Of a DNA stretch of 64,000 nucleotides, positions 17,001-61,573 are shown in pieces. Source of the DNA: Dastarcus helophoroides (taxonomy: Eukaryota > Arthropoda > Insecta > Coleoptera > Bothrideridae); assembly GCA_028583605.1 (NCBI GenBank), contig CM053325.1:59292813-59356812 (forward strand), in the 5' to 3' direction. Each line of letters starts with the position of its first letter. Within the stretch, counting starts at the first letter, position 1. The position numbers were made by a program, and so were the translations under genes. The notes under the pieces were generated by a model. It did no database searches. It was not told the origin of the DNA and saw only the letters and a program-made list of their open reading frames with translations.

Positions 17001-20000
17001 ATTTCAGTTTTTTATTTTTTTTTTAAATTTTTTGCTTTGCACTAAAAATTGTGTGTTTTTTAAAAATTTTAATCCTAGTCACGAAATTACTACTTTTTAA
17101 AACAAATTTCGAGTTTAAACCCAAAAGTTTTGCTTCATCAGATAACTTTCGGTTTTTTCTCAATATTTAAATTTTTTCTGAATATTTTGGTAAACTCAAC
17201 ATTTTGAGTTTTAAAAAAATGTACCTCAAACTTCGACCCTTCTGGATTTTTAATGATAAAATTCTTTTCTTTTTCATCGTTTTAATTTTTTGTCCAAATT
17301 TCCGCTTTTCCTGAAGATTTTTAAAATAAATTCAAAGTTTCGACAAAAATCGAAATGCAAATTAAAATGGAAGCTTCTATTGACTTTTTTTAATTTCATC
17401 TTAAATATCTAATATTCCTAATTTCGTCTTTGATCTCAAATTTTATGCTGCTCTGAAGAGTTCAAAAATCAGTTATTTTGAAAAAATTACTGGGTATCTC
17501 TAAAAAAATTTTTAAAATTTAAATTTAGAAGATTTAAATATCGAGACTGAAGTCGAACTTTCGAGTTTCAAATTATAGTCCAAATTTGGAAGTTAAGATT
17601 AGAAATTTTATGCAAAAATAAAAAATGAGCACTAAGTAAAAGACCAAGACGTTTATTGATTTAACAACTCAGCTTTGTCTTTAAATTTTGCAATATTGCT
17701 TTTTTCGAAGAAATTTCTGTGTCTCTAACATAAAAGGGGGGGGGGGGAGTTGGACCCCCCCCCCCCCCACCGAACGAAAATCCTGGCTACGTGCCTGCCA
17801 AGGGGGGCGCTACAGCCCCTATATTTACTATCGTCATATACAACAACAAGTTCTATTGTTATTTGTTATAAATATCTTACAAAATTTCATATATAATAAT
17901 TTTCACTTAATGTTTATATACTTCAAGTTATTTGAGATTATTGTATTTAAAAATTATTTGTTGTTTATACCTGTTTGAGGCAAATAATCGTTCTTAATTT
18001 CTGTAAATGATGTTATGTACAAATCCTTCTGTAATTACCAGTAATATTCTAGGACAAAATATTTGCTACCCGGGTTTCAGGGCCGCCCTGTCGGCGCCCT
18101 GATCCAAATTTCTTTCTTTTTTTATGAGCTTCACAAAACTATTAAATTTTTATAACTTTAAGGATACCTTTCTCTCGTTGACCAGTATTACCCTCTCCTG
18201 GAGTTACGAGAAGGTGCCATAAAAGTAAGCGTTAGAAAAGCATCAACTAAATGATATATTTCTACATTTTATTTATATTCATATCTGTGAACATGTTGAC
18301 TACCCCTCAGTTATAATAAAAGTGACTAACGACTACAGAGATCAGTTTCAAGTGAACTTCTTCACTATGTTCTCTAGCATCTAGGTTCGATGCGCAGCAA
18401 GCTGCCCGGCGAAATGAACGTCTGGATGAACGGCGAGATGAACGGCTCCACTATGTTTTGAATTGTATAATTTAGTAAATAAAAAAAGTTTCTAGAAAGT
18501 TCTGATAAGGGGAAAGCGGCCGCGATAACGAAACAAACGGCAGATAAGCGTTCCAGAAATTTCGGCATTCGATAAGCCTTATCTGCCGAAAATTCTGGAA
18601 GCCGGGGGCCGAAACTATAAAAAGGCGGTCAGCTTTCCCTCGAGTCAGTTAGAGTCAGTGTTAATTAGCGAGTTAGTAGAAGTCAATAATAAGTGAGTTA
18701 ACTGTCAATTGTGGTGATCCAAGTTGAGTTCAGTAATAAAGTGGGTCTTATTCGATAAGTGTAATCAATTCGAACCGATAACGCACGTAACAATATTTTA
18801 GCATTTTTGAAGAAATCTTCAAATTTACAACAAAGGTTTTAACGATATTTCAATAAAAAGTATTCAGCTTCTGGATTAAAGTCCAAAAAAAAGTGATAAA
18901 ACATCAAAATTTGAAGACAAAACGGCAAATTTTTGGAAAAAGGTCGAAATCTACAAAAAAAAAATTCAACCTTGGAAAAAACTCTCGTAAGAACTCTGAT
19001 ATTAAAACAGATCTAAAACTTAAAATTTCGAAAAATAGAATTTAAATTTAAAACGAAGCTTTCAAAATAGCTTCTAATGCACAGACCGATAGGTGTGAAC
19101 ATTTATTAGATTCGAAGTTTGGAAACCAAAGACCAGTTTCGATCTTGTTAGATCTCGTCAGTTTGGTATATCCAACTCGAATGCTAACAAATGTTCAGAC
19201 AAGTAAATACTAAAGAATTCACGGACGACAAGCGTGTGACTCTTAGTACTACCATCTATTGGTCCATAGAGGAACTATGATACACTATACACGCCTGGAG
19301 GGCTGCATGAATTTGTAGTCTAGGTTGCATTCTAGTTGCATACGACATTCACGGACGACAAGCGTGTGACTCTTAGTCCTACCATCTATTGGTCCATAGA
19401 GAAACTATGATACACTATACACGCCTGGAGGGCTGCATGAATTTGTAGTCTAGGTTGCATTCTTCTTGCATACGACATTGTTGGCGATGGCCATAGTTTC
19501 TCTATGGACCAATAGGTGGTAGTATTAACAGTCACACGCTTGACGTCCGTGAATTCTTTAGTACTTACTTGTCGGAACATTTGTTAGCATTCGAGTTGCA
19601 TACATATACCAAACTGACAAAATCTAATAAGATCGAAACCGGTCTTTGGTTTCCAAACTTCGAATCTAATAAATGTTCACACCTATTTGGTCTGTGCATT
19701 AGAATCCTTGTCTTCTGGGAAATGTTTCCTAGAGAGCAACCGCTTCTCTAGGTGGCAGTGTTTCAACTGTTGGTAGTTCAGCTACCTATGATTCACTATA
19801 CACGCCGCCTGGAGAACTGCATGAATTTGTAGTCTAGGTTGCATTCTACTTGCATATTTCAAAATAGCGTCAATATCTTTTCGAAAATATAAAAATCGTT
19901 AATTTATAATTTTACATTAAAAAAGTATAAATTGAATGTGTAAAATGGAAATATTTTGAAAGAGGTTATCCCAATTTACAAAAATATTGAAAACTGAAAT

Positions 20001-23000
20001 ATAGTCGACAAAAATAGTCAACAATTTCAAAAATTATAGATTTAAAAAAATTGAAATTTAAAAAAAAAGTTCGAAATGTTTAAAAATATCCAAAATTTTG
20101 AAAAGATGGGGAAATCTTTAGAAATACTAAAAACTTTGGAAGAAAATCTAAATATTTTAAAAATAAAAACTTCGCCAAAAATTAGAAATTTTGAAAAATA
20201 TCCGAATGCATTAATTTTTTTTAAAAATCGGAAAAAGGTGGAGCACAGATAAAGGTCGAAAATTTCAGGACTCAAAATTATGAAAAAGTCCAGATTTTAC
20301 AAATATATGACATTTTTAAACATTTTTGAAAAAAAATTGCATTTTTCAAAACAGTCATGATCTTCAAAAAGTCGAAGTTAGGAAAAAATTTTGAAAATTT
20401 GTTAACAGCCGAGATTTTTTAATTTATAGAAAACACAGAAATGTTAAAGAAAATCGAAATTTTTAAGATAACTGAAAATTGGAAAAAAGTAGAGCAGAAT
20501 TCTAAAAAGCTAAGATTTGAAAAAAAAAATAAAAAATCTCAAAAAAGTCGAAATTTTGAAAAAAAACCCAGTTTTTAAAAACACCATATTTTCAAAGAAA
20601 TAGGAAATTTCAAAAAGTTGAAGGTTTAAAAAATTACCAAACCTTAAAAAAAACCAAAATTTCTAAAAAAAACGCTGACAATTTCGAAAACACCTAAAAA
20701 AAAACTTATCGAAGAAAATAGTAGGAAATTTCAAAAACGTTTAAGAAAACTCGACATTTTCAACAAATGTAAAAATTTTCAAAAAACGGAAATTTTGAAA
20801 AAAATTTTGCAATTTTCAAAAAGATGTTCAAAGTGTTGAAATTATTAAAAAATGTCGACAATTTGTCAGAAATCGAAGTTTTTGAAAAAACTTGAAAATT
20901 TTAAAAAATTGCGAATTTTAAAAAAGAGTCAACGAAAATATCCAGAAGATTTTAAAAATATAGAAATTTTTAAATTTTTAAAAAAATCAATATTTTTAAG
21001 AAAACCAAAATTTTCAAAAGAAATTGAAAACTGAAAAAAAGTGAAGAACAACAGTATTCGGAGGAAAGGTAAGATTTGAAAAAAATCAAAAATTTTAAAA
21101 AATCCAGCTTTTATAAAATTGACATTTTAAAAAAAATATGAGTGCCAAAATGTTCAAAAAAAGTCAAAATTTGTAAAAAAGCCTAAATATTCAAATAAAT
21201 CTCAATATAAAGAACTAGTCGCAGAAAATGGTGCAAAATTTCAAAAAGGTTAAAGAAAAATCTAAATTAAAAAATAAAAGTCGAAATTAAAATAAATTCA
21301 AACATTTCAAAATATATTCTTCATGGTAGACCCTTATTGACCGGAAATATTATGTTTTTTTCAATTTATTTAACATTTCTTCGGCCCAGTTTGGAAATAT
21401 TTAAATTTTTATGATTTGTTGACAACTTTCTAAACAGTTTTTAAAATGCGACTACGTGATATTTAAATTTATTGAAAACGTCACTTCATGACAGTTTACA
21501 AATTAAGAGGTTATTTTATTTTACATAGAATAGGAATAATGAAAAATAGGAGACCAAAAATTAGATATGGAAAAAATAAAAATGTTGTTTTTTTGATAAA
21601 TTAGGAAAATATAAAAAAATATATAAAAATGGTTGTAGCACTGGACATCGATGTTTCGCTCTCATTTGAGCTCGTCAGCAGTGCATAACATGGAAAGGGA
21701 ACAATGAGGAAGAAATACTTAAAAATAAATTTTTTTTTAAAATATAAAAAAGTAAAATAAAGAAATTTTAACTAACCTCTTAATTTGTAAACTGTCATGA
21801 AGTGACGTTTTCAATAAATTTAAATATCACGTAGTCGCATTTCAAAAACCGTTTAGAAAGTTGTCAACAAACCATAAAAATTTAAATATTTCCAAACTGG
21901 GCCGAAGAAATGTTAAATAAATTGAGAAAAACATTTCAAAATATACTGCGAAATTTTTGAAATACTCGAAATTTTTAAAAGCAGTCGACGGAAAAAATCT
22001 AAGATTACAAAAGATGTCGAAACTTAAGTCAACATCTAAAAATATCTAAATTTTCAAAAAAAATTGAAAATTTGATAAAATAGCGACATTTTTGGAACCA
22101 CAAATAATTGAAATTAAAAATTTTGAAAAAAAATCAGGTTTCAAAGAATTCGAATTTTCAAACAACGTAGGAATTTTCAAAGTGAAATGTTTGAAAAAAA
22201 TTTCGAAAATTGCGATATATGTCGAGATTTAAAAGAATCAACCTTTAAAAATATGTAAATTTTCAAAAAAATTAAAAATTTGGTAAAAAGATAACATTTT
22301 TGGGACCAGAAATATTTGAGATTCAAAATTTGGGACAAAAAATCAGCTTTCAAAAATTCAACTTTTCAAACGATGTAGGAATTTTCAGTTGAATTTTTAA
22401 AGAAATAGTAAATAAAAAGAGTTTCTAGAAGGATCTGATAAGGGGAAAGCGGCCCCGATAACGAAACAAATGGCAGATAAACGTTCCAGAAATTTCGGCA
22501 AACGATAAGCCTTATCTGCCGAAAAGTTCTAGAAGTCGGGGGCCAAAACTATAAAAGGCGGTCAGCTTTCCCTCGAGTCAGTCAGTTAGAAGTCAGTGTA
22601 GTTAGTGGGTTAGCAATTAGTAAATAAGAAGTGAGTTACTGTTCAGTTGATGTGTGCCGAGTTAATTTGGTAATAAAGTGGTGTAATTCACAGGTGGCAA
22701 TCTATTCGAACCGATAAAGCCCGTAACAATATACAATTTAAAAAATCAAAATGTTCGAAAAATCGAAATAATGAAAAAGAAATTCGATAAATTGCAAAAA
22801 TTCGACATTTTGAAAAATGTCTCAATATTTGAAAAAAATGGCGAATTTTTATAAATAGTTCACAAAATGTTTGGAAATATCAAAAAATGTTAACATCTAA
22901 TAAAAATTGACATTTTCAAAAAAAAAGTCAAAATCATCAACAAAATCGAAATTTTGAAAAAAAAATCAAAGTCGGAGAAAAGCCGGAATGAGGTACAATT

Positions 23001-26000: not shown

Positions 26001-29000
26001 GTTGTGTTTTTTAATCATTTTTGGCTTCTGGGGACAAGATTTGTATTTCAATTTTTGAAAATAACCAAGGGCCAGTCCGTTCTACCAATATTTCTGTGAA
26101 TTTAAATGTGGCGAAAATTTTTACCTTTTACCTTGCAATTTCAATCTTTATTTAACATTTTGTCTACTTCCCAAAATTTTGACTGTTTTTTTAAATTTCG
26201 GTTTTTCTTAGAGATTTTTGCTGCTTTGAAATAAATTGAACTTTTATTGAAAAAATTAGAATTCTCTGGAAAAATCCGAATTCTTTGAAAAATGTCCACT
26301 TTTTATAAAGTCGAAATTTCTAAAAAAAAATTTGGAATTTTTAGAAACCGAAATTTTAAGAAACGTCCAAATTTTGAATTGCTCGGGGTTTTTAAAAACC
26401 ATCAAAACTTAAAAGAAACCTCCAAAATTTGAAAAATAGCAACGAAATTTTCAGGAAACTGAAATTTTATAAAAAAGTTAAAATTTTCAATAATGTCGGT
26501 ATTAAAAACATATATTTTTTGAATAATGGAGAATTTTATTAATGGAGATTTTTAATAAAAGTTGCAATTTTTAAAAACGGCAATTTTGAGTGGAAATGTT
26601 TAAAAGAAAAATTCTAAAAATTTATGAAATTGTTCAAATTTTCAATCAAGTCAAAATAATGTTACGTAAATTTTGAAGTAAAAATTGCCAAAACAGTTAA
26701 AATTAAAAAAAAACTCATTAATAAAAATTCAAATATTTCGAAACTGGGTCCCAGACATGTTAAATAAAATTAATAAACATAATGTTTCTGACTAACAAGA
26801 GTCCACCATGAAAAATAAAATGTCTGCAAATTTTGGAAATTTCCAAAAAAGTCAAATTTTTCTAAAAGGGTTGAAATATTCAAAAAGAGGCGAAGTTTTT
26901 AAAACATAAAATGTGGCAAAATTTACATAGACAAAATAGAATTATTCAAGAAATCGAAATTTCCAAAACAATAAAAAATTTCAAAGAAACTTTAAATTAA
27001 AATTAGCCAAATCCAAATGAAGATATCATTTTTCAAAAAATTGCAATTTGCAAAAGGTGCATTTCAAGAAAGAGCCGAAAATTTAAAATAAATAAAAAGT
27101 CATATTTTTAACTTTTTTTAGAAATTATGACTATTTTTGAAAATTTCGAATGTTTTGAAAATTTTTAAATTCCAGAACTTCTTTTCCTAAAGATTTTGAC
27201 TGGTTTAGCAATTTTTAACTCAAGATAAACGTAATTTTTTTTGGACTTTATGGAAAAGATTTAGAAAAAAAGTAGCTTTCTCAAAACGTCTAAATTTCCA
27301 AAAAAAAAGTCTAAATATTTAATTGCAATTTGCAAAAAATATATTTCAAGAAAAAGCTAAAATTTTCAAATAAGTAAAAAAATCATATTTTTAAATTTGT
27401 TTTAGAAATTGTAACTATTTTTGAAAATTTAGATTTTTTAAGAAATTTCTAAATTGCAGAAATTCTGTTTCTAAAAATTTTGACTGGTTTGGCAATTTTT
27501 ATTTCAGAATTAACTCAAACATTTTTGGATTTTATCAAAAAGATTTAGAAAAAGGGTAGCTTTCTCAAAACGTGTAAATTTCCAAAAAAAAAAGTCTAAA
27601 TATTTAATTGCGATTTGTAAAAAGTACATTTCAAGAAAAAACTGAAATATTTAAATAAATATAAAACAGTCATATTTTTAACTTTGTTTTAGAAATTGAC
27701 TGTTTTTGAAAATTAAGATTTTTTTAAAAATTTCTAAATTCTAGAAATTCTGTTTCTAAAAATTTTGACTTGTTTGGCAATTTTTACTTCAAAATTAACG
27801 TAAAGATTTTTGGACTTTATCGAAAAGATTTAGAAAAAAAGTAGCTTTCTCAAAATGTCTGAATTTCCAAAAAAAAATGTCGAGGTATTAAAAGAGGGAT
27901 GACATTTTCAAATTAATCATGTTCATAATGTGGAAGTCTTTAAAAAAGTAAAATATAAAACATTTAAACTTTGAAGAGTCAAAATTGTAGAAAAGGGGTC
28001 GAAATTTCGAAAAAGCTCGAAATTCAAAAAAAAGGTAGGACGACAGAAAATTAAAGTGGAAATTTTGAAAAGGGCAAATATTCGAAAATATCGAAATTAT
28101 AAAGAGTGGGAATTTTAAAAAGAAACTTGAATTTTATACTATTTTAAACGGGTTGAAATATTCAAAAAACTCAAACTTTTCAAAAATCAAAATTTTAAGC
28201 AAAAACCAACATTTTCGAATTTTCGAAAATCAAAATTTAGGAAAAAGAGTGAAAAATTTTAAAATCTCGGAATTTTGAAAAAAGTGAAAATTGGAAATAA
28301 AAATCAAATTTCAAAAAGGGTGGAATTTTGAGTAGAGGACGTAATTTTAAAGAAAGACATTTTTTAGTGGAGCTTGAAATCTAGAAAAGGTTCGAAATTT
28401 TTAAAATGAGACATGTTAAAAAAAATGAGATGGAGTTGAAATTTTAGAAATAAGTAACTTTTTCGAAAAAAAGTGGGATTACAAAAATTTTGTTGAGAAA
28501 GTAATGAACACTTTATTTCTTTAAAAGATCGTAGAGCGGATTTTGTTTAAAAAAATATTTTTTGTGTGTTTTTGTAGTTTAATTAGAACTTTGTAATAAA
28601 ATACATTTTATCTTCAAATGCAGTTTTCATGAAAAATTGATATAATTTTATTCCTATGAAAGCAAACAATTTTAATTAAGTAATCTAGAACCGTAACCAG
28701 ATGCAACCGCACAGAATACTTTAAGGGGCTCAGAAATGTCGATAATGATTTTTTTTTGTAGTCGATGAAAATAATTTAGAGATGATAATCCAAAAATATT
28801 TTGGAGGTTATAAGATGTTAATTAAATTTAATTCGTAAAAATACTATTAAATATCACACCTTTTGTATCACTTTTGTTTCTCTTAAATTTAATAGCTCTA
28901 TGGCACTGGAGTCACCTAAACTCTTAACTACTAATATTTTTGCATCTGCGCACCCCCTGTCAAAAAGTCACCAGCCGCCACTGACTGGCAGGCAACAATT

Positions 29001-30047: not shown

Positions 30048-30185
30048 CAGGGGCGGCCTTTGGGGGTGGCAAGCAGGGCAACCTCCCGGGGCCTCGCGCA
30101 CTCGCGCAATAGCACGAATTCTAATGTTCATTTGAATTTCGAGCCTTAACCGCGCATTATAAAACTGGACTCGCTGCTCCCTTAC

Positions 30186-31412
30186 GTGGTCAACAGCGAC
30201 GAGGAAGAAGTAGCAATCACGGATTGCGAAACTTCCTCTAATATGGAAACCGGAACTGACCATACAAGCGATAATCCTTTTATTTCTCAGGAGAGAAAGA
30301 GAAAAAGGAAGAAAAGGAGCACCACTACAACAGCCAGCGACAGCGAGGCCTCAGAGACGGCCACTGTCAAGGCAAAGAAAATCATGCAGAAAAAACAAGA
30401 GAAACAAGAGAAGGCACAAGATAACGGGATAACTCCACCCATTATCTTGAGAAAACAAGAAGATTGGGCAAATGTATCGAAGCTTATGAGGTTAAGCAAG
30501 ATACAATTCACAAAAGCCAAGGCGATCAGGGACAGCATAAAGGTTTTTCCTGCTCGTGTAGAAGATTACCGTGCCTTAGCAAGAATGTTAAACGAGAGGA
30601 AAGTCTCGTATCACACATTTTCGCTTCCCGAAGAAAGAAACCTTAAGGTGGTTATTAGAGGAATAGCCACCTCCCTCAAAGAAGAACAAGTTAAAAAGGA
30701 CTTAGAGAAGCAAGGATTTAACCCCCTGAAAGTGTCAAGGATGCACAAAAGGGACAAAGAACAAACAATTATGCCTCTTGTCTTCGTAGAAGTCAAGAGG
30801 GAAGAAAAGAAAATCTTCGACTTGGACAGATGCTGTGGCTTGGAAATCACAGTTGAAGCCCTAAGAAATAGAAAGGATGTCGGGTAGTGCTACAATTGTC
30901 AGCAATTTGAGCACAGTCAAAGAAACTGTCACGCAGATCCGCTCTGCGTCATCTGCGGACAGAAACATGATTCACGCAGCTGTGATCAACCCAAGTCGCA
31001 GCCAGCGAAATGCGCCAACCGGGATAGAGCTCATCACCCAGCGAGCTATCGCGGTTGTCCCGCAGCACCAAAAATCAAGAACAGTAGGATTATTGTTCAA
31101 AAGAAGACAAACAACGAAACAAGCTACGCAAGCGTAACAAAAGGACCACTTAAACAGCAGGTGACGGAAAACAAAAGTTACGCCAGCAAGCTAAAAGGAC
31201 CTCTAAAACTGACAAAGAAGGTTAAAAAAGAGAAACCGAAGAAAAAGAAGACGAAGAAAACCGAAAAAACCGAAAAAAGCGCCGGAAAGAAAGCCGAAAT
31301 GAGCATTATCTTATGCGAGATGATAATGCAATTCAACAGTGCAGGAGCAACACCAAGTGAAGTGAAAGACTTCATGGAGATGGTGCAAAAACTGTTGAAT
31401 TTAGTCGGTTAA
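30186..31412 (+). pseudogene. Jockey ORF1 (gag-like), one in-frame stop
   Basis: RNA-binding gag-like protein of the Jockey clade. One frame is open from 30186 to 31412 except for a single TAG at 30885-30887, where the family normally has Gln before the first knuckle. The first ATG is 30243. N-terminal acidic and Lys-rich stretches come first. Then follows a PRE_C2HC-type domain (VVIRGIATSLKEEQVKKDLE, near residues 155-232). First knuckle is CYNCQQFEHSQRNC, second CVICGQKHDSRSC; the third has lost a cysteine (CANRDRAH). The C-terminus is Lys-rich. ORF2 starts 3 bp after its stop. Confidence 0.85.
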
Positions 31413-31414
31413 AA

Positions 31415-34095
31415 ATGACTAGCTCTCAACAAAAAAGGAAACCCAGCTGCCTGAAAGTGGTAGCCTGGAACAGCGACGGGATTACAAATAAGATACTAGA
31501 ACTAAAGGAGTTTTTAATAGAGCACAATATAGACGTGTTTCTATTAAGCGAAACTAAATTAAATGGAAGCGACAAGATAAAAATACCAAATTATGCAATC
31601 TACAGAGCAGATAGAAATAGAAGAGGAGGAGGAACAGCAATTCTAGTTAAAACAAACCTAGATTACTATACTCCAGATCAGCCGGAAACAAGTCACTTAG
31701 AGTATAATATGGTGACAATTGGAATGAAAGATAATAAAGAAATTAGAATAGCATCGGGATACATTTCACCGAACAAAGCAGTTCTCGAAGAAGATTTTGA
31801 AAAAATATTCATCGCGAACGAAGAAACGTTTATTGTAGGAGATTTTAACGCGAAACATCCGCAATGGAATTGCAGGGTGAGAAATACTAAAGGCACAGCA
31901 CTGGAAAGATACGTCACTGAAAATGACATAGGTGTTTTGGCTTCTAGAGAACCAACACATTATGGCCATATAGGACGTCCTGATATACTGGATATAGGAA
32001 TTTTTAAGAATATAACTAGAAATATGGAGATATATACGAAATCTGAACTAAGTTCAGATCATAACCCGATATATATACAAATAGGAGAAGAAGGCTTATT
32101 GGAAGAACAACAGTTAGTTAAAAGAACTAACTGGCAAAGATACAAAAGGCATCTGGAAGAAAATCCGACATTAATGGAGGAGATTTCAAATGTCAACGAA
32201 TTAGAAAGAAGCGTCAGAAAGATACAAGAAAATATTTTGAATGCCATCAGTGTGGCGACGTACGAGGAAAGACGGGATTTTAGAAAAAAAAAATTGCTAT
32301 ATCAAAGAACTAGCAAGAGAGAAAAACAAACTAAAGAAGAAATATCACAGGACTCTTGATCCTCGAAATAAAAGGAATATGAACAGAGCACAGACTGCAT
32401 TGAGGCAGGCCTTAGAGCAGCAGAGAAATGCAGAATGGGACAGAAAGCTAGAAGAAGTAACAGTGCAAGATAATTCTCTCTGGCAACTACATAAAATTTT
32501 AAAAAGGGAAAAAACACAAACTCCCTGTATGCACACCCCAAGAGGAACTGTGTATACTCCGGAAGAAAAGGCAGAAGCTCTGGCTAACCACTTGGAGGAA
32601 CAATGCCAGCCTAGCTGCAGAAATTACAACGATGAACAAATAACACAAGTAAACAGACTCCTAAGACAAAAAGCAGTAGCAAATGAGGAAGGAGAACCAG
32701 TAAGAGAAACAAATGTGGAAGAAATTAAGTCAATAATCAAGAATATGGCGAAGAAAAAAGCACCAGGAAGAGATCAAATCTCAAATCTGGCCCTAAAAAA
32801 TCTCTAGGAAGCGGAGATTGAAAAAATCAGGAAAATTATCAACACGATAATAAAAATGGAACATTTTCCCAGCATATGGAAATTCGCACAGGTGGTGATG
32901 ATTCCAAAGCCGGGAAAAGACCCAACGTATCCACAAAATCAAAGACCGATAAGTCTTCTCCCAGCCATAGGTAAAGTGGCAGAAAAAAATAATCTGCTCA
33001 AGATTGCAAGAAGAATTAGAAAGATTAGAGGTAATACCGGAAGAACAATTTGGATTTAAACCGGAACACACCACCACACAACAGGCGTTGAGGTTGATCG
33101 AAGAAGTCGCACAAGGATTAAGCGATAAACAGTCCATGGGGTTGGTCTGATTAGATGTTGCCAAGGCTTTTGACAAAGTTTGGCACAAAGGACTAGTATA
33201 TAAAATGCATAGAGCAAATATCAATCCCAAATTAACAAGGATAATACAATCCTATTTAAAGAATAGGAAATTCGAGGTAAAATTGGACGGAATAATAACA
33301 GAAGAAAGAAGAATAAGAGCTGGGGTTCCGCAAGGTTCGGTTCTAGGCCCCACTCTATTTAACACATATATGCATGACATTCCCAAACCAAACGGAGTAA
33401 AGATAGCGCTGTATGCGGATGATACAGCGATTCTAGCAAGACACACAAGACAAGAAATAATAGTTAGAAGATTGCAAGAAGCACTTAATCAAATGGAAGA
33501 ATGGTTTAAAAAATGGCGTATTGAAGTCAATGGGGACAAAAGTACGGCCACATATATGACAAGAAAAAGGCCTCAGCCAGAGGAAATTTTAAATATTTTC
33601 AACGAAGACATTCCCTGGACAGAAGAGGCAAAATATCTAGGAATAATTCTAGATAAAAAGCTAACGTTCAGGAAACATATGGAACACGCTAAGAAGAAAG
33701 CAATAATGGCAAGGACAAGAATTTATTCGCTTCTGTGCAGAAAAAGCCGTCTAAGTCTCAGAAACAAACGATTAATTTACAAAGCAGCTATACAACCTAT
33801 AATGACTTATGGTGCAGCGTGCTGAGGATATACAGCAAAATCAAACATGAATATACTGCAAACAGTACAAAACACAACGCTAAGAATGATAGCCAACGCT
33901 CCCTGGTTCGTAACCAACCGAAGAATTCATGAAGATTTACAAATAGAAACGATATTAGAAACGGTAAAAAAAGCCGCAAGAAGAGAGTTTGATAGAGCTG
34001 AAATACACCCAAATCGACTACTTGGGGAAGTAGTGGATTATGAACCCCAAGATTATCCAAGAGTCAAAAGACCTAGGATGGTCTTAAGAAGATAA
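31415..34095 (+). pseudogene. Jockey ORF2: endonuclease and reverse transcriptase, frameshifted
   Basis: The apurinic-like endonuclease is open at 31415-32359: VVAWNSDGI, SETKL, GDFNAKHPQW, SSDHNPI. A frameshift in an A-run near 32290 moves to the frame running to 32807 (APGRDQIS). Further shifts occur near 32810 and 33000, a stop at 33150 (TGA), and a TGA at 33823. RT motifs: PISLLPAIGK, LDVAKAFDKVWH, AGVPQGSVLGP, LYADDTAIL, YLGIILDKKL. The C-terminal tail ends at 34095. It is inactive. Confidence 0.85.
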
Positions 34096-39626: not shown

Positions 39627-40798
39627 CTACTGTTCCTCAAATGAGGACTTGAGTTCGTCAAGCTTTCCAGCGGCTTGGTTCAGAACTTCAAAGAAATTTG
39701 GGTTCCGAGCCGCTTCATCAATCTCCTCGATACTTCTTGGCCAAAGAACTCCCTTTCTTATCGCTAGCTGCTCTGTTCTGTTCCTCCATTCCTCCCGATT
39801 CCTGCATACGAACATTACATGGTCAGCATCCTCGGGCTCTCCGCATTGGCATAATGGTGAGTTCCTTTTCTCCATCCTGTGGAGGTATTCCTGAAACCTT
39901 CCGTGACCTGTAAGCAGCTGTACGCATTGCTGCGTAAGCTGCCTTCCTCTTAGACGCCTGTAGCCTTCCACTCTTCTCAGGTAGCGATGAGTCCCTCTCC
40001 CTGTTGTGGCAGAATCCCATCGTTCTTGCCACCTGAAAAAAGAACAACGCGACAGTCTGGTCCTAATAAGCCCAAAGGGCACCTTATCGTATTCATATCC
40101 CACCACCATGTTATTATTATCATTATTGCCTAAACTGCAGGCGCCTTTCGCGAGCTCGTCCGCCCTTTCGTTGCCAGTGACTCCCCGGTGTCCCTTAACC
40201 CATTCCAATCGCGTTTTATTTTGTTCTTGAAGCAGATCTTGCGCTTCCTTAACAAGTTCCGAATTTGGTTTATTTTACATGGCAGCTATTGCCGCCTTAC
40301 TATCACTCCTTATTATGCAACTTTCCAGCGTACGAGCTCGTTCTAGTGCTTTCTTAATAGCTAATACCTCCGCCTGAAACACCGAGCAATTGCCTCCGAG
40401 CCTGTATTGCCCCTTACCTATTTCCTTTCCTTTCCTATAAATAACGTGAGCTGCTCCTGTGCCTGTTTCCTGTTTGGATCCGTCTGTATAAATTTCGTTT
40501 TCCGTTGCCATTTCTTGCTTCTTTTGGTCCACTTCCTTTACCGGATGTTTCCTTCTCTTCTTGACCTTTTTCTCTATCTGTTCTGCGTTAATCTCCAGTC
40601 CCGTTTCTTCACGAATTTTTCCCCTGTCCATTCAAATATTCTTTTTCTGTTTCTTATTTCTTCTAATTTAATATCTATTGGTACCAGCCCTGCTAATACC
40701 AATGCCGCTTCCGTTGACACTGTTCGATAAGCTTTCCCTGCTTTAAGTGCCATTATTCTTTGTACGCTTAATAGCTTCCTTTTTTCTTTGACTCCCAT
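39627..40798 (-). pseudogene. R1/LOA-like C-terminus: RNase H and CCHC-like region
   Basis: Continuation of the polyprotein: 40798-40632 (VKEKRKLLSVQRIMAL, TVSTEAALVLAGL), a frameshift near 40625, then RNase H (YTDGSKQETGTGAA, FQAEVLAIKKAL, RSDSKAAIAAM). One TAA at 40275-40277 follows, then in the same frame WVKGHRGVTGNERADELAKG. Next is a cysteine/histidine segment LCQCGEPEDADHVMFVC. The stop at 39627 is probably natural. Confidence 0.85.
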
Positions 40799-40877
40799 TT
40801 TATCGTACCATAAGTTCGCCCCATATGTTATAATAGGTTCGATTGCGCCTTCGTAGATAGCTGCAATGTTTCTCCCT

Positions 40878-43090
40878 TTAAGACCCCAGTCTAGGGCCGC
40901 AGCTGCTGTAATTTTCTGTGCTACATTCTTTGCTTTCCCTGTGTTTTATGTGTTCCTTATAGTTTAATTTCTTATCTAGTATAATTCCTAAATATTTAAG
41001 CGTTTCTTTGCACCTTATTCTGCCACTTCCCATCCTGAAAGTCGGCTCTTGTTGATTTGAACTTTGTCCAAAAAATATAGCTTCCGTTTTTTCTGCATTA
41101 AATTTCACCCTACTCCTTTCGGCCCAGGCTTCTAGCATTATCAGTGCTTCTTCGCCCGCTTGTTTTGTGCCCTTCCATGCGTTATTCCTTATGATAAGTG
41201 CCGTATCATCAGCATATGCTATGATGCGACACCCATTTGGCAGCTCACATTTAAATATATCGTTATAAAATAGTTTCCAAAATAACGGTCCAGACTTCGA
41301 TCCTTGGGGGCATCCCAAGTCTACTGTTTTATTTACTTCAACTCCTTCTTCCTTCATTATCGCTATTCTCTTCCTAAAATAATCTCTTGCCAATTGGACT
41401 AAATTATCAGGACATTCATATTCTATCATCTCGTTTATTATTTTTGGCCTCCATGCGTTATCAAACGCTCCTTCTATATCCAATGATATTATTGTACAGT
41501 ATTCCCCCCTTTCCTTTGCAAGTTTAACTTCTTGAACTACCTCTTGTATAGCATCTTCCGTGCTTTTCCCTTCTTCGAATCCATATTGATCCTTGTGAAT
41601 CTTTCCTCTTCCCATGTTTATATGATATTCGACCCTACTCGCCATCAGTCCATCCAGCACTTTCCCAAGTACTGGAATAAGACTGATTGGTCTATGTTTG
41701 GTTTTATCGTTTCCTTTTGGGATCAGCTTAACCACCTGTTTTTTCCAGATGTCAGGAAATGCTCCTTTTTGAAGACATTTATTGAATAAATCAACAAATA
41801 CTTCTGGTTTGGCTTCGATTGCTTCTTTAATAATATCAGACGTTAATCCATCTATTCCTGGAGCTTTCTTTGAGCTCATTGATTTTATTATCCTTATTAT
41901 TTCTTCTTCTATGAATTCCTGATCGTTCTCTCCTCCGTTTAAGTTTTCAGCCCTTTGTCTGATTACCCCCTGTTCATCAGATTCATTTTCCTTATCTTCA
42001 TTTAGAAAGTACTTCATTAGAAGCTCTTGTGCTGTCTCTTCAGCCGTTTTTGTGTATTCGCCATTCTTTTTGCGTACGCTTTGCATCAGTACGCTACTTT
42101 TCCTTTTTCCTCTTATTATTTTGTATGCTCCTTTCCACGGATTCTGTCCCAGGTTTCTGCTACAGAGCTCCCTCCATCCGTTTAATTTTGCGTTTTCTAT
42201 TTCCTTTTTAAATTCCGTCCGCTTTTGCCGATAAGCTTCTAGCTTTTCTTTCCTCTCTTCCCCTTGTTTGTCTTGATAATCTCTTGGAGATTTGTTTACC
42301 TCTTTTTTCTTTTCTGTTAATTCTGAAGTCCACCATGGCACTGCTTTCTTATTTCCTTTCCTTTTGGGAATTACTTCCCCTGCTATCCTTTCGATAGTCT
42401 TATTTATTTTCTCGGCTACCGCGTTAATTTCTTGTTTTGTGTGCGCTTCTCTTATTTCGACTTCTATACCTTCCATTTCTTCTTTAATTCTCTTTGAGAA
42501 TTTCCCCCAATCTGCTTTCTTTGTACTAAATCCAAAGTTTTCTTCAACCCTATTCTCTCCTTCTATCGTAAACATGATGTTTCTATGATCACTCAGATTT
42601 TCTTCTTGCTCTACGTTCCATCCTTTTATTAGCGAATATATTCCCATGGAAGCTAAAGTCACATCCAAGTGGCTGCTCCCATGTGGCCCTATATATGTCG
42701 CTTCTTCTCCTTCGTTCACAATTACCAGATCCAGCTCAGCTATCAACTCGGTAATCGCGTTTCCTCTGTTATCTTCCCTCTGACTTCCCCAAGCAGGTGA
42801 CTTACTGTTCACGTCTGCTCCGATTATTATTCCGCCTCCTTTCGTTTTTAGTACGCTTATAATTTCTCTCAGTTTTCTTACTTTCATAGTGAATGTGTCA
42901 TTCTCCATTCTTCGTGCCACAGGTAGTATATACGAAGATACCGCAAACATGTGTCTATCTCCCAGATTAATACCTATTACCGTATTATAATTATCTGCTA
43001 ATTCCTTAATTTCTATTGCCCCCATTGAATTACTATTAATTAAAATCGCTGTTTTATCTCCTCCTGCGAATACTCTAGAGCACAGACGTA
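40878..43090 (-). pseudogene. R1/LOA-like endonuclease and reverse transcriptase
   Basis: An open frame of more than 700 codons from about 43090 (RVFAGGDKTAILINSNS, upstream of ATG 43025). Endonuclease: GADVNSKSPAWGSQ, SSHLDVTLAS, LSDHRNIMF. RT: SKKAPGIDGL, HRPISLIPVLGK, SLDIEGAFDNAW, GCPQGSKSGPLFWKLFYNDI, AYADDTALI, LKYLGIILDKK. A frameshift near 40942 breaks it; the thumb continues in another frame (GKAKNVAQKITAAAALDWGL). The length of intact frame shows a fairly young insertion. Confidence 0.88.
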
Positions 43091-43416
43091 TAGGTGGTGA
43101 GTTGTCTCTTTTCTACAAGTACTATTATGGAAGATGCTGGCAGGAACTAATAGGATTGATCCCCCCAAGGGCAAGATTCTTGAGGCGTACTAGACAGTCG
43201 GAGGCAGCAAATTCCTGTGCGGTCCAGCTTGACACAGTGAGGGCTTCTGTCTACGAAGACTCTTTTTTCTATAGAACTTCCAAGTTATGGAACTTGTTAC
43301 CGAATGGAATTTTTCCCAAAAATTACAACCTATTCTTATTTAAAAAGGCGATTCATCGCCATCTATCCTTGTTTCCGCATCCTACTCGCAGTGCTTTGAA
43401 AGCATTATGGGGTTAA
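43091..43416 (+). pseudogene. C-terminal tail of a LINE reverse transcriptase (plus strand)
   Basis: Encodes SLFYKYYYGRCWQELIGLIP, RARFLRRTRQS, VQLDTVRASVYEDSFFYRTS, LWNLLPNGIFPKNYN, the usual C-terminal tail of CR1/Jockey-like insect LINEs, to a stop at 43414-43416. It may be the 3' end of the LINE whose RT fragment lies at 38257-38515, split by the R1/LOA insertion; about 250 codons in between are missing. Confidence 0.75.
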
Positions 43417-57430: not shown

Positions 57431-57564
57431 AATGTAACAATTTCTGCTAAACAGCAGTGGTCAAATATTGGTAGTTTAGCCGCCTATGATCCACTACACA
57501 CGTTTAAAGAGAGGGTTGTATTATTGCAGTTATGTAGTATTATATGCAGAACACCGCTTTTTCC
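57431..57564. repeat. Repeat related to 19740-19855
   Basis: Shares GGTAGTTTAGCCGCC and CTATGATCCACTACACACG with the sequence next to the fold-back element (GGTAGTTCAGCTACC, CTATGATTCACTATACACG). It forms the left border of the satellite. Confidence 0.6.
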
Positions 57565-60500
57565 CATGTCTCTCCCGACCGTAGCTGTCAAGATTTAAAT
57601 GAAATAAATGTAAAATGTGTCTAATTTAGTCAACTTTGAGATGCTGCTACCGAATTTGGCTTTTATATTGGCCTTCGATCTTTCGTTTTAACGATAGAAG
57701 TCCCCAAAGTGTATAAATTTGGATCTTCGCATTTTTCCATGTCTCTCCCGACCGTAGCTGTCAAGATTTAAATGAAATAAATGTAAAGTGTGTCTATTTT
57801 AATCAACTTTGAGATGCTGCTACCGAATTTGGCTTTTATATTGGCCTTCGATTATTCGTTTTAACGATAAAAGTCCCCAAAGTGTATACATTTGGATCTT
57901 CGCTTTTTTTCATGTCTCTCCCTACCGTAGCTGGCAAGGTTCAAATGAAATAAATGTAAAATGTGTCTATTTTAGTCAATTTTGAGATGCCGCTACCGAA
58001 TTTGGCTTTTATATTGGCCTTCGATTATTCGTTTTAACGATAGAAGTCCCCAAAGTGTATAAATTTGGATCTTCGCATTTTTCCATGTCTCTCCCGACCG
58101 TAGCTGTCAAGATTTAAATAAAATAAATGTAAAATGTGTCTATTTTAGTCAATTTTGAAATGCTGCTACCGAATTTGGCTTTTATATTGGTCTTTGATTA
58201 TTCGTTTTAACGATAGAAGTCCCCAAAGTGTATAAATTTGGATCTTCGCTTTTTTCAATGTCTCTCCCGACCGTAGCTGTCAAGATTTAAATGAAATAAA
58301 TGTAAAATGTGTCTAATTTAGTCAACTTTGAGATGCTGCTACCGAATTTGGCTTTTATATTGGCCTTCGATTATTCGTTTTAACGATAGAAGTCCCCAAA
58401 GTGTATAAATTTGGATCTTCGCTTTTTTCATGTCTCTCCCGACCGTAGCTGTCAAGATTTAAATGAAATAAATGTAAAATGTGTCTATTTTAGTCAATTT
58501 TAAGATGCTGCTACCGAATTTGGCTTTTATATTGGCCTTCGATTATTCGTTTTAACGATAGAAGTCCCCAAAGTGTATAAATTTGGATCTTCGCTTTTTT
58601 CCATGTCTCTCCCGACCGTAGCTGTCAAGATTTAAATGAAATAAATGTAAAATGTGTCTAATTTAGTCAACTTTGAGATGCTGCTACCGAATTTGGCTTT
58701 TATATTGGCCTTCGATACTTCGTTTTAACGATAGAAGTCCCCAGAATGTATAAATTTGGATCTTCGCCTTTTTTCATGTCGCTCCCGACCGTAGCTAGCA
58801 AGATCTAAATGAAATAAATGTAAAATGTGTCTATTTTAATCAACTTTAAGATGCTGCTACCAAATTTGGCTTTTATATTGCCCTTCGATTAGTCCGTTTT
58901 AACGATAGAAGTCCCCAAAGTGTATAAATTTGGATCCTCGCTTTTTTTCATGTCTCTCCCGACCGTAGCTGTCAAGATTTAAATAAAATGAATGTAAAAT
59001 GTGTCTATTTTAGTCAATTTCAAGATGCTGCTACCGAATTTGGCTTTTATATTGGTCTTTGATTATTCGTTTTAACGATAGAAGTTACCAAAATGTATAA
59101 ATTTGGACCTTCGCTTCTTTCAATGCTTCTCCCGACCATAGCTATCAAGATTTAAATGAAATAAATGTAAAATGTGTCTAATTTAGTCAATTTTAAGATG
59201 CTACTACCGAAATTGGCTTTTATATTGGCTTTCGATTATTCGTTTTGACGACAGAAGTCCCAAAGTGTTTAAATTTGGATATTCGCTTTTTTCCATGTCT
59301 CTCCCGACCGTAGCTGTCAAGATTTAAATGAAATAAATGTAAAATGTGTCTATTTTAGTCAAATTTGAGATGCTGCTACCGAATTTGGCTTTTATATTGG
59401 CCTTCGATTATTCGTTTTAACGATAGAAGTCCCCAAAGTGTATAAATTTGGATCTTCGCTTTTTTCCATGTCTCTCCCGACCGTAGCTGTCAAGATTTAA
59501 ATGAAATAAATGTAAAATGTGTCTAATTTAGTCAACTTTGAGATGCTGCTACCGAATTTGGCTTTTATATTGGCCTTCGATACTTCGTTTTAACGATAGA
59601 AGTCCCCAAAGTGTATAAATTTGGATCTTCGCTTTTTTCATGTCTCTCCCGACCGTAGCTGTCAAGATTTAAATGAAATAAATGTAAAATGTGTCTATTT
59701 TAGTCAATTTTGAGATGCTGCTACCGAATTTGGCTTTTATATTGGCCTTCGATTATTCGTTTTAACGATAGAAGTCCCCAAAGTGTTTAAATTTGGATAT
59801 TCGCTTTTTTCCATGTCTCTCCCGACCGTAGCTGTCAAGATTTAAATGAAATAAATGTAAAATGTGTCTATTTTAGTCAACTTTGAGATGCTGCTACCGA
59901 ATTTGGCTTTTATATTGGCTCTTCGATTATTCGTTTTAACGATAGAAGTCCCCAAAGTGTATAAATTTGGATCTTCGCTTTTTTCAATGTCTCTCCCGAC
60001 CGTAGCTGTCAAGATTTAAATGAAATAAATGTAAAATGTGTCTAATTTAGTCAATTTAAGATGCTGCTACCGAATTTGGCTTTTATATTGGCCTTCGATT
60101 ATTCGTTTTAACGATAGAAGTCCCCAAAGTGTATAAATTTGGATCTTCGCTTTTTTCATGTCTCTCCCGACCGTAGCTGTCAAGATTTAAATGAAATAAA
60201 TGTAAAATGTGTCTATTTAGTCAACTTTGAGATGCTGCTACCGAATTTGGCTTTTATATTGGCCTTCGATTATTCGTTTTAACGATAGAAGTCCCCAAAG
60301 TGTATAAATTTGGATATTCGCTTTTTTCCATGTCTCTCCCGACCGTAGCTGTCAAGATTTAAATGAAATAAATGTAAAATGTGTCTAATTTAGTCAACTT
60401 TAAGATGCTGCTACCGAATTTGGCTTTTATATTGGCCTTCGATTATTCGTTTTAACGATAGAAGTCCCCAAAGTGTATAAATTTGGATCTTCGCTTTTTT

Positions 60501-61352
60501 TCATGTCTCTCCCGACCGTAGCTGGCAAGATTTAAATGAAATAAATGTAAAATGTGTCTATTTTAATCAACTTTGAGATGCTGCTACCGAATTTGGCTTT
60601 TATATTGGCCTTCGATTATTCGTTTTAACGATAAAAGTCCCCAAAGTGTATAAATTTGGATCTTCGCTTTTTTCATGTCTCTCCCGACCGTAACTGGCAA
60701 GATTTAAATGAAATAAATGTAAAATGAGTCTATTTTAGCCAACTTGAGGATGCTGCTACCTAATTTAGCTTTTATATTGGCCCCTGATTATTCGTTTTAG
60801 CGACAGAAGTCCCCAAAGTGTATATATTTATATATTCGCTTTTTTCCATGTCTCTCCCGACCGTAGCTGTCAAGATTTAAATGAAATAAATGTAAAATGT
60901 GTCTATTTTAGTCAATTTTGAGATGCTGCTACCGAATTTGGCTTTTATATTGGCCTTCGATTATTCGTTTTAACGATAGAAGTCCCCAAAGTGTATAAAT
61001 TTGGATCTTCGCATTTTTTCCATGTCTCTCCCGACCGTAGCTGTCAAGATTTAAATGAAATAAATGTAAAATGTGTCTATTTTAGTCAATTTGAGATGCT
61101 GCTACCTAATTTGGCTTTTATATTGGCCTTTGATTATTCGTTTTAACGATAGAAGTCCCCAAAGTGTATAAATTTGGATCTTCGCTTTTTTCCATGTCTC
61201 TCCCGACCGTAGCTGTCAAGATTTAAATGAAATAAATGTAAAATGTGTCTATTTTAATCAACTTTGAGATGCTGCTACCGAATTTGGCTTTTATATTGGC
61301 CTTCGATTATTCGTTTTAACGTTAGAAGTCCCCAAAGTGTATAAATTTGAAT
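57565..61352. repeat. Satellite array, about 22 monomers of about 172 bp
   Basis: Monomers begin CATGTCTCTCCCGACCGTAG at 57565, 57738, 57911, 58084 and so on to about 61193, with 172-173 bp spacing. Most differ at only a few positions; units near 58780-59290 and 60700-60840 are more diverged. Each contains GATGCTGCTACCGAATTTGG and CGTTTTAACGATAGAAGTCC. No protein, tRNA or hammerhead core is present in the monomer. It runs straight into the LINE's 5' region. Confidence 0.97.
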
Positions 61353-61573
61353 CTTCGCAGGTCTATTTTAGTAGGTGGTAGACCGGAACTTTCAGTCGTC
61401 CGAGGTAGTACCACCCCACGTATCACTAGGAGGCGGTGAAATGTTGCTTACATCATATTTCCGTCTCTGACACGTGAGTCGGTTTCTGCTATTCTTCTTT
61501 TCTCATCCTATCCTTTTCCTTATTTCCCTTTTTCATCTACTCTAATCTTTTCTACTAATTATTAAAAACAAAG

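What the first reader, a model, noticed from the sequence alone, without database searches (positions are those of the whole stretch)
21638..21684. Complete hammerhead ribozyme in the centre of a 583-bp fold-back element
Seen: on the minus strand the order stem I (GCACUG/CAGUGC), CUGACGA, stem II (GCUC/GAGC), GAA, self-complementary ACAUCGAUGU, cleavage C (GUC) matches every conserved hammerhead position, with all three stems paired. Known: minimal type I hammerheads with weak stem III occur in animal retrozymes and Penelope-like elements and often work as dimers. Inference: a non-autonomous mobile RNA family is present, here unusually placed between 161-bp inverted arms.
Basis: partly seen in the sequence, partly recalled or inferred. 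Interest (0 to 1): 0.82.

Follow-up and report, generated by a model that had tools for sequence, protein, structure and literature searches.

The report
Self-cleaving RNA in jumping insect element
A real RNA-cutting motif sits in a small, protein-free jumping element of an insect (probably beetle) genome, and the way its copies are inserted points to Penelope-type enzymes as the machinery that moves it.

Summary
The hammerhead is real: core and three stems at 21638-21684 (-), Rfam HH9 42.1 bits, E 2.3e-7 per 64 kb (below the gathering score of 52). A strict descriptor finds 1 here and 4 in 7177 shuffled windows. It belongs to a dispersed family in a 539-Mb genome: 132 pieces with only 40 of 2429 candidates scored. 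The unit is a non-coding 711-bp monomer with one hammerhead, in one array at exact 711-bp spacing. The 'fold-back' is two 5'-truncated copies joined head to head. Of 45 head-to-head clusters, 33 had both 3' ends classified: 32 had one end with and one without a ~35-nt tail, 1 had two tails. Of the 32, 27 have target duplications of 11-19 bp. This is the published Penelope (PLE) signature, and two GIY-YIG-encoding families of this genome show alternative 3' ends 28-37 nt apart. Best reading: a non-autonomous hammerhead family mobilised by PLE machinery, close to animal retrozymes but longer. Its parent element was not found; cleavage, circular RNA and transcription are untested.

The parts
21638..21684 (-). 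Type I hammerhead ribozyme; predicted cut after C at 21644
   Evidence: genome copies
21317..21771 (-). Sense copy, monomer positions 256-711, 5'-truncated, with 3' tail
   Evidence: 95.8% over 457 columns to the L079 monomer
21317..21351 (-). 35-nt 3' tail, missing from the inverted partner
21770..21934 (+). Inverted, shorter, tail-less partner, monomer positions 512-676; head-to-head junction at 21770/21771
21300..21316 (.). 17-bp target-site duplication, left
   Evidence: this 17-mer occurs only twice in the window
21929..21945 (.). 17-bp target-site duplication, right (its first 6 bases also match the arm)
26721..26815 (+). Third, strongly 5'-truncated copy (monomer 616-711, 80%) with tail, no hammerhead
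19072..19856 (-). Second hammerhead element (e2): inverted arms, 2 x 130-bp tandem, different sequence
19108..19179 (-). Second hammerhead, core intact; stem III 2 bp
   Evidence: 33.8 bits, E 1e-4; fold z -4.14
19604..19675 (+). Inverted copy of the second hammerhead, degenerate (CTGACAA)
19060..19071 (.). 12-bp target-site duplication of e2, left
19857..19868 (.). 12-bp target-site duplication of e2, right

Best explanation
The window holds one insertion of a non-autonomous, non-coding retroelement family with a type I hammerhead, mobilised by Penelope-type (PLE) machinery. SHOWN: a 711-bp monomer with one hammerhead; an array with exact 711-bp spacing; scattered 5' ends; 3' ends clustering at two points about 35 nt apart; head-to-head pairs that nearly always have one end of each kind; target duplications of 11-19 bp; GIY-YIG-encoding families in the same genome with alternative 3' ends a similar distance apart. 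INFERRED: the hammerhead trims or releases monomer RNA (a 711-nt linear or circular unit from a tandem transcript); a PLE protein nicks both strands of an AT-rich target; reverse transcription starts inside the RNA, on one strand at the tail site and on the other at the tail-less site; the two incomplete cDNAs join at their 5' ends, leaving an inverted repeat with the hammerhead wherever a cDNA reaches far enough. At 21.3-21.9 kb the tailed cDNA reached monomer 256 (with hammerhead), the tail-less one only 512 (without).
For: Hammerhead. Copies. Conservation in 38 segments of 29 loci from the whole-element DNA search: mean divergence 0.4% in the hammerhead, 1.4% in the arm, 2.8% after it; 1 of 400 47-nt windows is lower; 32 of 38 strictly intact. 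Spacing 711, 711. Of 135 3' ends, 62 lie within 10 nt of monomer 711 and 50 at 668-690; 5' ends scattered. One tailed and one tail-less end in 32 of 33 head-to-head clusters with both ends classified (1 TT, 0 tt; 12 of 45 had an unclassified end); tailed side longer in 27 of 32. Duplications >=10 bp in 27 of those 32 and 30 of all 75 clusters, against 6 of 375 random pairs. PLE precedent: inverted pLTR pair, 31-bp tail on one, TSD (PMC3846280, passages); two internal RT start sites delimiting the tail, both strands cut and extended (PMC11167929, passages and main text); 5' truncation (PMC8969392, passage). Same genome: 91 GIY-YIG matches, 150 of 1070 candidates scored; in 11 loci taken, two families (A, 6 loci; B, 5 loci) whose shared 3' regions stop at two points 28-37 nt apart.
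Against: No autonomous PLE with this family's pLTR or tail was found: none of the 11 GIY-YIG loci taken carries it as its own 3' end (a short copy lies 1.1 kb past the ORF in L080). The monomer has no long ORF. No transcription, cleavage or circular-RNA data. A circularised monomer is not unusually structured (z -0.60). In the one PLE studied in vitro, ribozyme mutants inserted as well as wild type (PMC11167929), so the ribozyme may be dispensable for insertion. 23 of 135 3' ends lie at neither site. Duplications >=10 bp were found in only 3 of the 43 other clusters. For the window alone the duplications are less striking against random pairs from the whole, repeat-rich window (16 of 1500 reach 12 bp, 4 reach 17) than against local pairs (1 and 0 of 1489). 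The DNA-search loci were chosen by similarity to the window copy, which itself has a tailed and a tail-less arm, so that sample leans towards the arrangement; the window copy is counted among the 32. The Rfam-chosen loci alone give 12 mixed and 1 double-tailed, tailed side longer in 9 of 12. In the Rfam-chosen loci 13 of 400 windows are less diverged than the hammerhead and 29 of 50 are strictly intact.
Confidence: 0.8

Rival explanations
1. A typical animal non-LTR retrozyme: tandem hammerhead monomers cut out as circular RNA, with the inverted arrangement incidental.
For: Non-coding, GC 30.8%, one hammerhead per 711-bp monomer in a head-to-tail array. Published animal retrozymes are non-coding tandem repeats with type I hammerheads (PMC7229834, first part and passages).
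Against: The published size is about 170-400 nt. Among the clusters examined the commonest layout is head-to-head with one tailed and one tail-less end, which the passages that I read on retrozymes do not mention. A circularised monomer folds no better than shuffles.
Confidence: 0.35
2. A fold-back or MITE-like DNA transposon with inverted termini that happens to carry a hammerhead.
For: 165-bp arms, 97% complementary, near the ends; flanking direct repeats.
Against: The shorter arm differs from copy to copy, from 47 to over 1000 bp; the two outer ends are not the same (tail on one only); duplication length varies 11-19 bp; 5' truncation and head-to-tail copies are retroelement traits.
Confidence: 0.04
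3. The hammerhead is a chance or decayed motif, or is carried only by descent, with no selected role.
For: Rfam gathering score not reached; MFE fold lacks stem III; fold z -0.94; PLE hammerhead mutants insert normally in vitro; in the Rfam-chosen loci 13 of 400 windows are as conserved or more.
Against: Chance: 4 hits in 7177 shuffled windows. Decay: mean divergence 0.004 in the hammerhead against 0.014 in the arm across 38 segments. A second element of different sequence in the window also has an intact core with different but paired stems.
Confidence: 0.12

Closest known systems
Penelope-like elements (Penelope/Poseidon clade; A. vaga Pen families, Anolis PAc)
   Same: Inverted and tandem pLTR-like copies, tail of ~31-40 nt on one end, variable TSD, AT-rich targets, hammerhead in the repeat unit (PMC3846280 passages; PMC11167929).
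   Different: No RT or GIY-YIG ORF in the 711-bp monomer; the hammerhead has a stem III and lies ~320 nt from the 3' end; TSDs 11-19 bp against 8-10 bp in the A. vaga cases read.
Animal non-LTR retrozymes (Cervera & de la Pena 2020)
   Same: Non-coding, low GC, type I hammerhead once per monomer, tandem copies (PMC7229834).
   Different: Monomer 711 bp instead of ~170-400; mostly head-to-head paired copies with a PLE-type tail; circular RNA not tested.
Rfam RF02275 Hammerhead_HH9
   Same: Best-matching model over its whole length, including UUA/UAC flanks of stem I.
   Different: 42.1 bits, under the gathering score of 52; here a mobile family, whereas HH9 is (recalled, from no call) a conserved motif of amniote introns.
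Schistosoma SMalpha / W-elements
   Same: Dispersed, non-coding, type I hammerhead (PMC6155905 figure legend; PMC8490949 passages).
   Different: Head-to-head tailed/tail-less pairing not mentioned in the passages read.

Membership tests
Type I hammerhead ribozyme | Conserved core CUGANGA ... GAA ... UH with three stems, open at stem I | tested here: met
Type I hammerhead ribozyme | Rfam HH9 gathering score reached | tested here: not met
   42.1 vs 52; best genome copy scored 45.9
Type I hammerhead ribozyme | Self-cleavage | not testable with these tools
   needs in vitro transcription
Penelope-like element, autonomous | ORF with RT and GIY-YIG domains in the element | tested here: not met
   no long ORF in six frames of the 711-bp monomer; so not filed as an autonomous PLE
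Penelope-type insertion structure | Inverted or tandem pLTR-like copies with 5' truncation | tested here: met
   45 of 75 clusters head-to-head
Penelope-type insertion structure | 30-40 nt tail on one end | tested here: met
   32 of 33 classified head-to-head clusters; 12 of 45 unclassified
Penelope-type insertion structure | Variable target-site duplication | tested here: met
   27 of 32 mixed-end pairs, 11-19 bp; 3 of 43 other clusters >=10 bp
Penelope-type insertion structure | Autonomous partner sharing the tail/pLTR | tested here: inconclusive
   11 GIY-YIG loci taken of 91 matches; none shares it as its own 3' end
Animal non-LTR retrozyme | Non-coding, low-GC monomer with one type I hammerhead in tandem | tested here: met
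Animal non-LTR retrozyme | Monomer of ~170-400 nt | tested here: not met
   711 bp
Animal non-LTR retrozyme | Abundant circular RNA of monomer length | not testable with these tools
   no RNA data; self-pairing of the circle not unusual
Fold-back / MITE DNA transposon | Same inverted termini at both ends and fixed-length duplication | tested here: not met

The most novel reading that the evidence does not exclude
The family is the missing link between animal retrozymes and Penelope elements: a ribozyme-bearing RNA monomer, perhaps circular, that a PLE protein inserts by priming on both nicked strands of one target, obligatorily starting one cDNA at the tail site and the other at the site ~35 nt upstream. 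The fixed tailed/tail-less pairing would then record how one dimeric PLE complex handles both strands, and would explain inverted pLTRs in general.
Probability: 0.45. Interest if true: 0.75.

Novelty: new variant of a known kind. Interest (0 to 1): 0.58.

Why it matters
A review of retrozymes names PLEs and Terminons as likely mobilisers because they co-occur and share hammerheads, but states that animal retrozymes show no conserved motif from which the mobilising retrotransposon could be deduced (PMC7761336, passages); a curation guide says only that they 'may rely on PLEs' (PMC8969392, passage). Here a hammerhead-bearing, protein-free family carries the PLE insertion signature in 32 examined clusters, in a genome whose GIY-YIG families show alternative 3' ends a similar distance apart. 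That makes the question testable by sequence alone. The near-absolute pairing of one tailed with one tail-less end is also a constraint on how PLE protein inserts both strands, which the in vitro work left open.

Tried and rejected
Chance motif: rejected by shuffles. MITE/fold-back DNA transposon: rejected by unequal ends, variable arms and variable duplications. Ribozyme-defined 5' ends: I expected 5' ends to pile up at the cut (monomer 386); they do not; a few lie at 341-349, at the start of stem I, too few to interpret. Highly paired RNA circle: not supported. The possible ORF start after the tail (MKNKPIPLTERTDSANGECF) does not lead into a long frame. Relatives elsewhere: exact-pattern scans of viral contigs and genome contigs and a plasmid search found nothing, as expected for a eukaryotic repeat. 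Parent PLE: not found in the 11 GIY-YIG loci taken. The monomer's internal part has a GTTCGACCC stretch like a Pol III B box (consensus recalled); a chance match is likely, so no claim is made.

Literature searched for novelty: (CC0/CC BY/CC BY-SA papers only). The original PLE-hammerhead paper (PMC4209133) and the Terminon paper (PMC5850863) are not held; I know them only from citations and recall.

Full report
THE OBSERVATION. On the minus strand, 21684 to 21638 reads stem I GCACTG, core CTGACGA, stem II GCTC-AAATGA-GAGC, GAA, the palindrome ACATCGATGT, C, and CAGTGC. Rfam's HH9 hammerhead model matches over its whole length at 42.1 bits, E 2.3e-7 for the 64-kb window, though under its gathering score of 52. 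A strict descriptor finds one such site in the window and four in 7177 shuffled windows. Plain folding neither helps nor hurts much: z is -0.94, and the minimum-energy fold keeps stems I and II but trades stem III for a competing pair.

A SECOND ELEMENT IN THE SAME WINDOW. The window holds another hammerhead at 19108-19179 (-), 33.8 bits, inside a second inverted structure (e2, 19072-19856). Its stems differ in sequence but pair: stem I ACCAAA/TTTGGT, stem II GATC/GATC. Its inverted copy at 19604-19675 is broken in the core (CTGACAA). Both elements have flanking duplications, 17 bp for the first (21300-21316, 21929-21945) and 12 bp for e2 (19060-19071, 19857-19868). Each occurs only twice in the window. 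Of 1489 local random pairs, 1 reached 12 bp or more and none 17; of 1500 pairs from the whole, repeat-rich window, 16 reached 12 and 4 reached 17. The two targets share TTTCAAAATA at the same offset of two bases from the element's 3' end, which suggests one insertion machinery; with two sites this is only a hint.

THE FAMILY. The window lies in a 538.9-Mb genome in 50 contigs. The host is probably a beetle: a gene fragment in L061 has eight relatives, and the four with a species name are all beetles; a TTAGG-type array lies beside one copy, L041. A LINE protein of the window had only two named relatives among 24, a butterfly and a fungus, which does not decide the order. HH9 gives 43 matches in the genome with 58 of 46564 candidates scored. 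The window element as DNA gives 132 pieces with 40 of 2429 candidates scored. Both counts are lower bounds.

THE UNIT. A locus on contig 3 (L079) shows exact 711-bp spacing between three successive 3' ends and holds five hammerheads. Five other loci show a tail followed by the same internal part and the next unit, with small length differences. The 711-bp monomer has no long reading frame. Its hammerhead lies at monomer 345-391, cut after 385. The window element is monomer 256-711 on the minus strand joined at 21770/21771 to an inverted monomer 512-676. So the 'fold-back' is two truncated copies of one unit, joined 5' end to 5' end.

HOW COPIES END. Across 71 fetched loci (L009-L079), 5' ends are scattered while 3' ends gather at two places: of 135 ends, 62 lie within 10 nt of monomer 711 (tailed), 50 at 668-690 (tail-less) and 23 elsewhere. 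Of 75 bounded clusters, 45 are head-to-head. Both 3' ends could be classified in 33: 32 have one tailed and one tail-less end (the window copy among them), one has two tails, none has two tail-less ends; 12 have an unclassified end. The tailed side is longer in 27 of 32. Duplications of 11-19 bp flank 27 of these 32; 30 of all 75 clusters have one of 10 bp or more against 6 of 375 random pairs. The loci are not a random sample: 30 were picked as most similar to the window copy, L079 from the same list, and 40 regions by hammerhead score. The Rfam-picked loci alone give 12 mixed and 1 double-tailed, with the tailed side longer in 9 of 12.

CONSERVATION. In 38 segments from 29 loci found by DNA search, the hammerhead's mean divergence from the majority letter is 0.004, the arm's 0.014, the region after the hammerhead 0.028 and before it 0.076; one of 400 windows of 47 nt is lower; 32 of 38 hammerheads are strictly intact and 6 carry one change, 2 of them in the core and 4 in stems I or II. 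In the Rfam-picked loci, which were chosen for hammerhead score, the values are 0.028 for the hammerhead and 0.056 for the arm, 13 of 400 windows are lower, and 29 of 50 are strictly intact. This is evidence for constraint, but no tree-aware test was made.

MECHANISM. These are features described for Penelope-like elements. In Adineta vaga a full insert has an inverted pLTR, a 31-bp tail on one of the inverted pLTRs, and a 9-bp target duplication (PMC3846280, passages). The Anolis PLE protein cuts and extends both strands and starts reverse transcription at two internal sites; the tail is the stretch between them (PMC11167929, passages and main text). In this genome, GIY-YIG gives 91 matches with 150 of 1070 candidates scored. 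I took 11 loci. The two families seen (A: L080-L083, L086, L090; B: L084, L085, L087-L089) have shared 3' regions that stop at two points 28-37 nt apart (A: L082, L083, L086 at 85, 83, 83 of the L081 reference against L090 and L080 at 113 and 119; B: L089 at 120 of the L084 reference against L085, L087, L088 at 153, 157, 157). Three of the ORFs were scanned and have the GIY-YIG domain; that they are PLEs is inferred, since RT was not tested. So the tail pattern of the hammerhead family resembles that of resident GIY-YIG elements. Neither A nor B shares its sequence, so the parent remains unknown.

WHAT IS INFERRED. That the hammerhead cuts; that it yields 711-nt units; that a PLE protein supplies the enzymes; that the two strands are primed at different sites. 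The in vitro PLE study found that killing its hammerhead did not reduce insertion, so a role in RNA processing, amplification or circle formation is more likely than a role in insertion itself.

VERDICT. The inverted arms are best read as a by-product of PLE-type insertion. The family is filed here as a new variant: non-autonomous, PLE-mobilised, retrozyme-like. It fails the published retrozyme size range and has no PLE protein of its own. That PLEs move retrozymes has been proposed (PMC7761336; PMC8969392). What I did not find in the listings and passages seen is the direct structural link and the near-strict tailed/tail-less pairing.

Noticed in passing
window 7096 (+), 24796 (+); related copies near 24.6-25.3, 43.6-44.0, 48.5, 49.1, 55.5, 30.0 kb: A dispersed repeat of the window carries a minimal hammerhead-like motif (CTGAAGA..GAAACGCGTT) also found after the GIY-YIG ORF of family B in 4 of 5 loci; these look like PLE pLTR pieces and may explain some of the weak microRNA hits.
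   Followed up: partly
L080 921-1056; L082 2363-2701: A short head-to-head copy of the first family lies 1.1 kb, and an e2-like copy 1.8 kb, downstream of GIY-YIG ORFs; possibly chance.
   Followed up: no
L059 795-1281; L055 904-1272: e2-like copies lie beside or between pieces of first-family copies, with hammerheads that differ from the window's e2 at several bases.
   Followed up: partly
L041 near 1874: A tailed 3' end abuts a CCTAA/TTAGG telomere-type array inside contig 5.
   Followed up: no
window 57555-61358: 22 copies of a 173-bp (or 11 of 345-bp) tandem repeat, 93-94% matches, without a ribozyme match.
   Followed up: no
window 30150-33825, 39627-43112, 61559-63796: Three broken LINE-type retrotransposons with endonuclease and reverse transcriptase domains.
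   Followed up: partly
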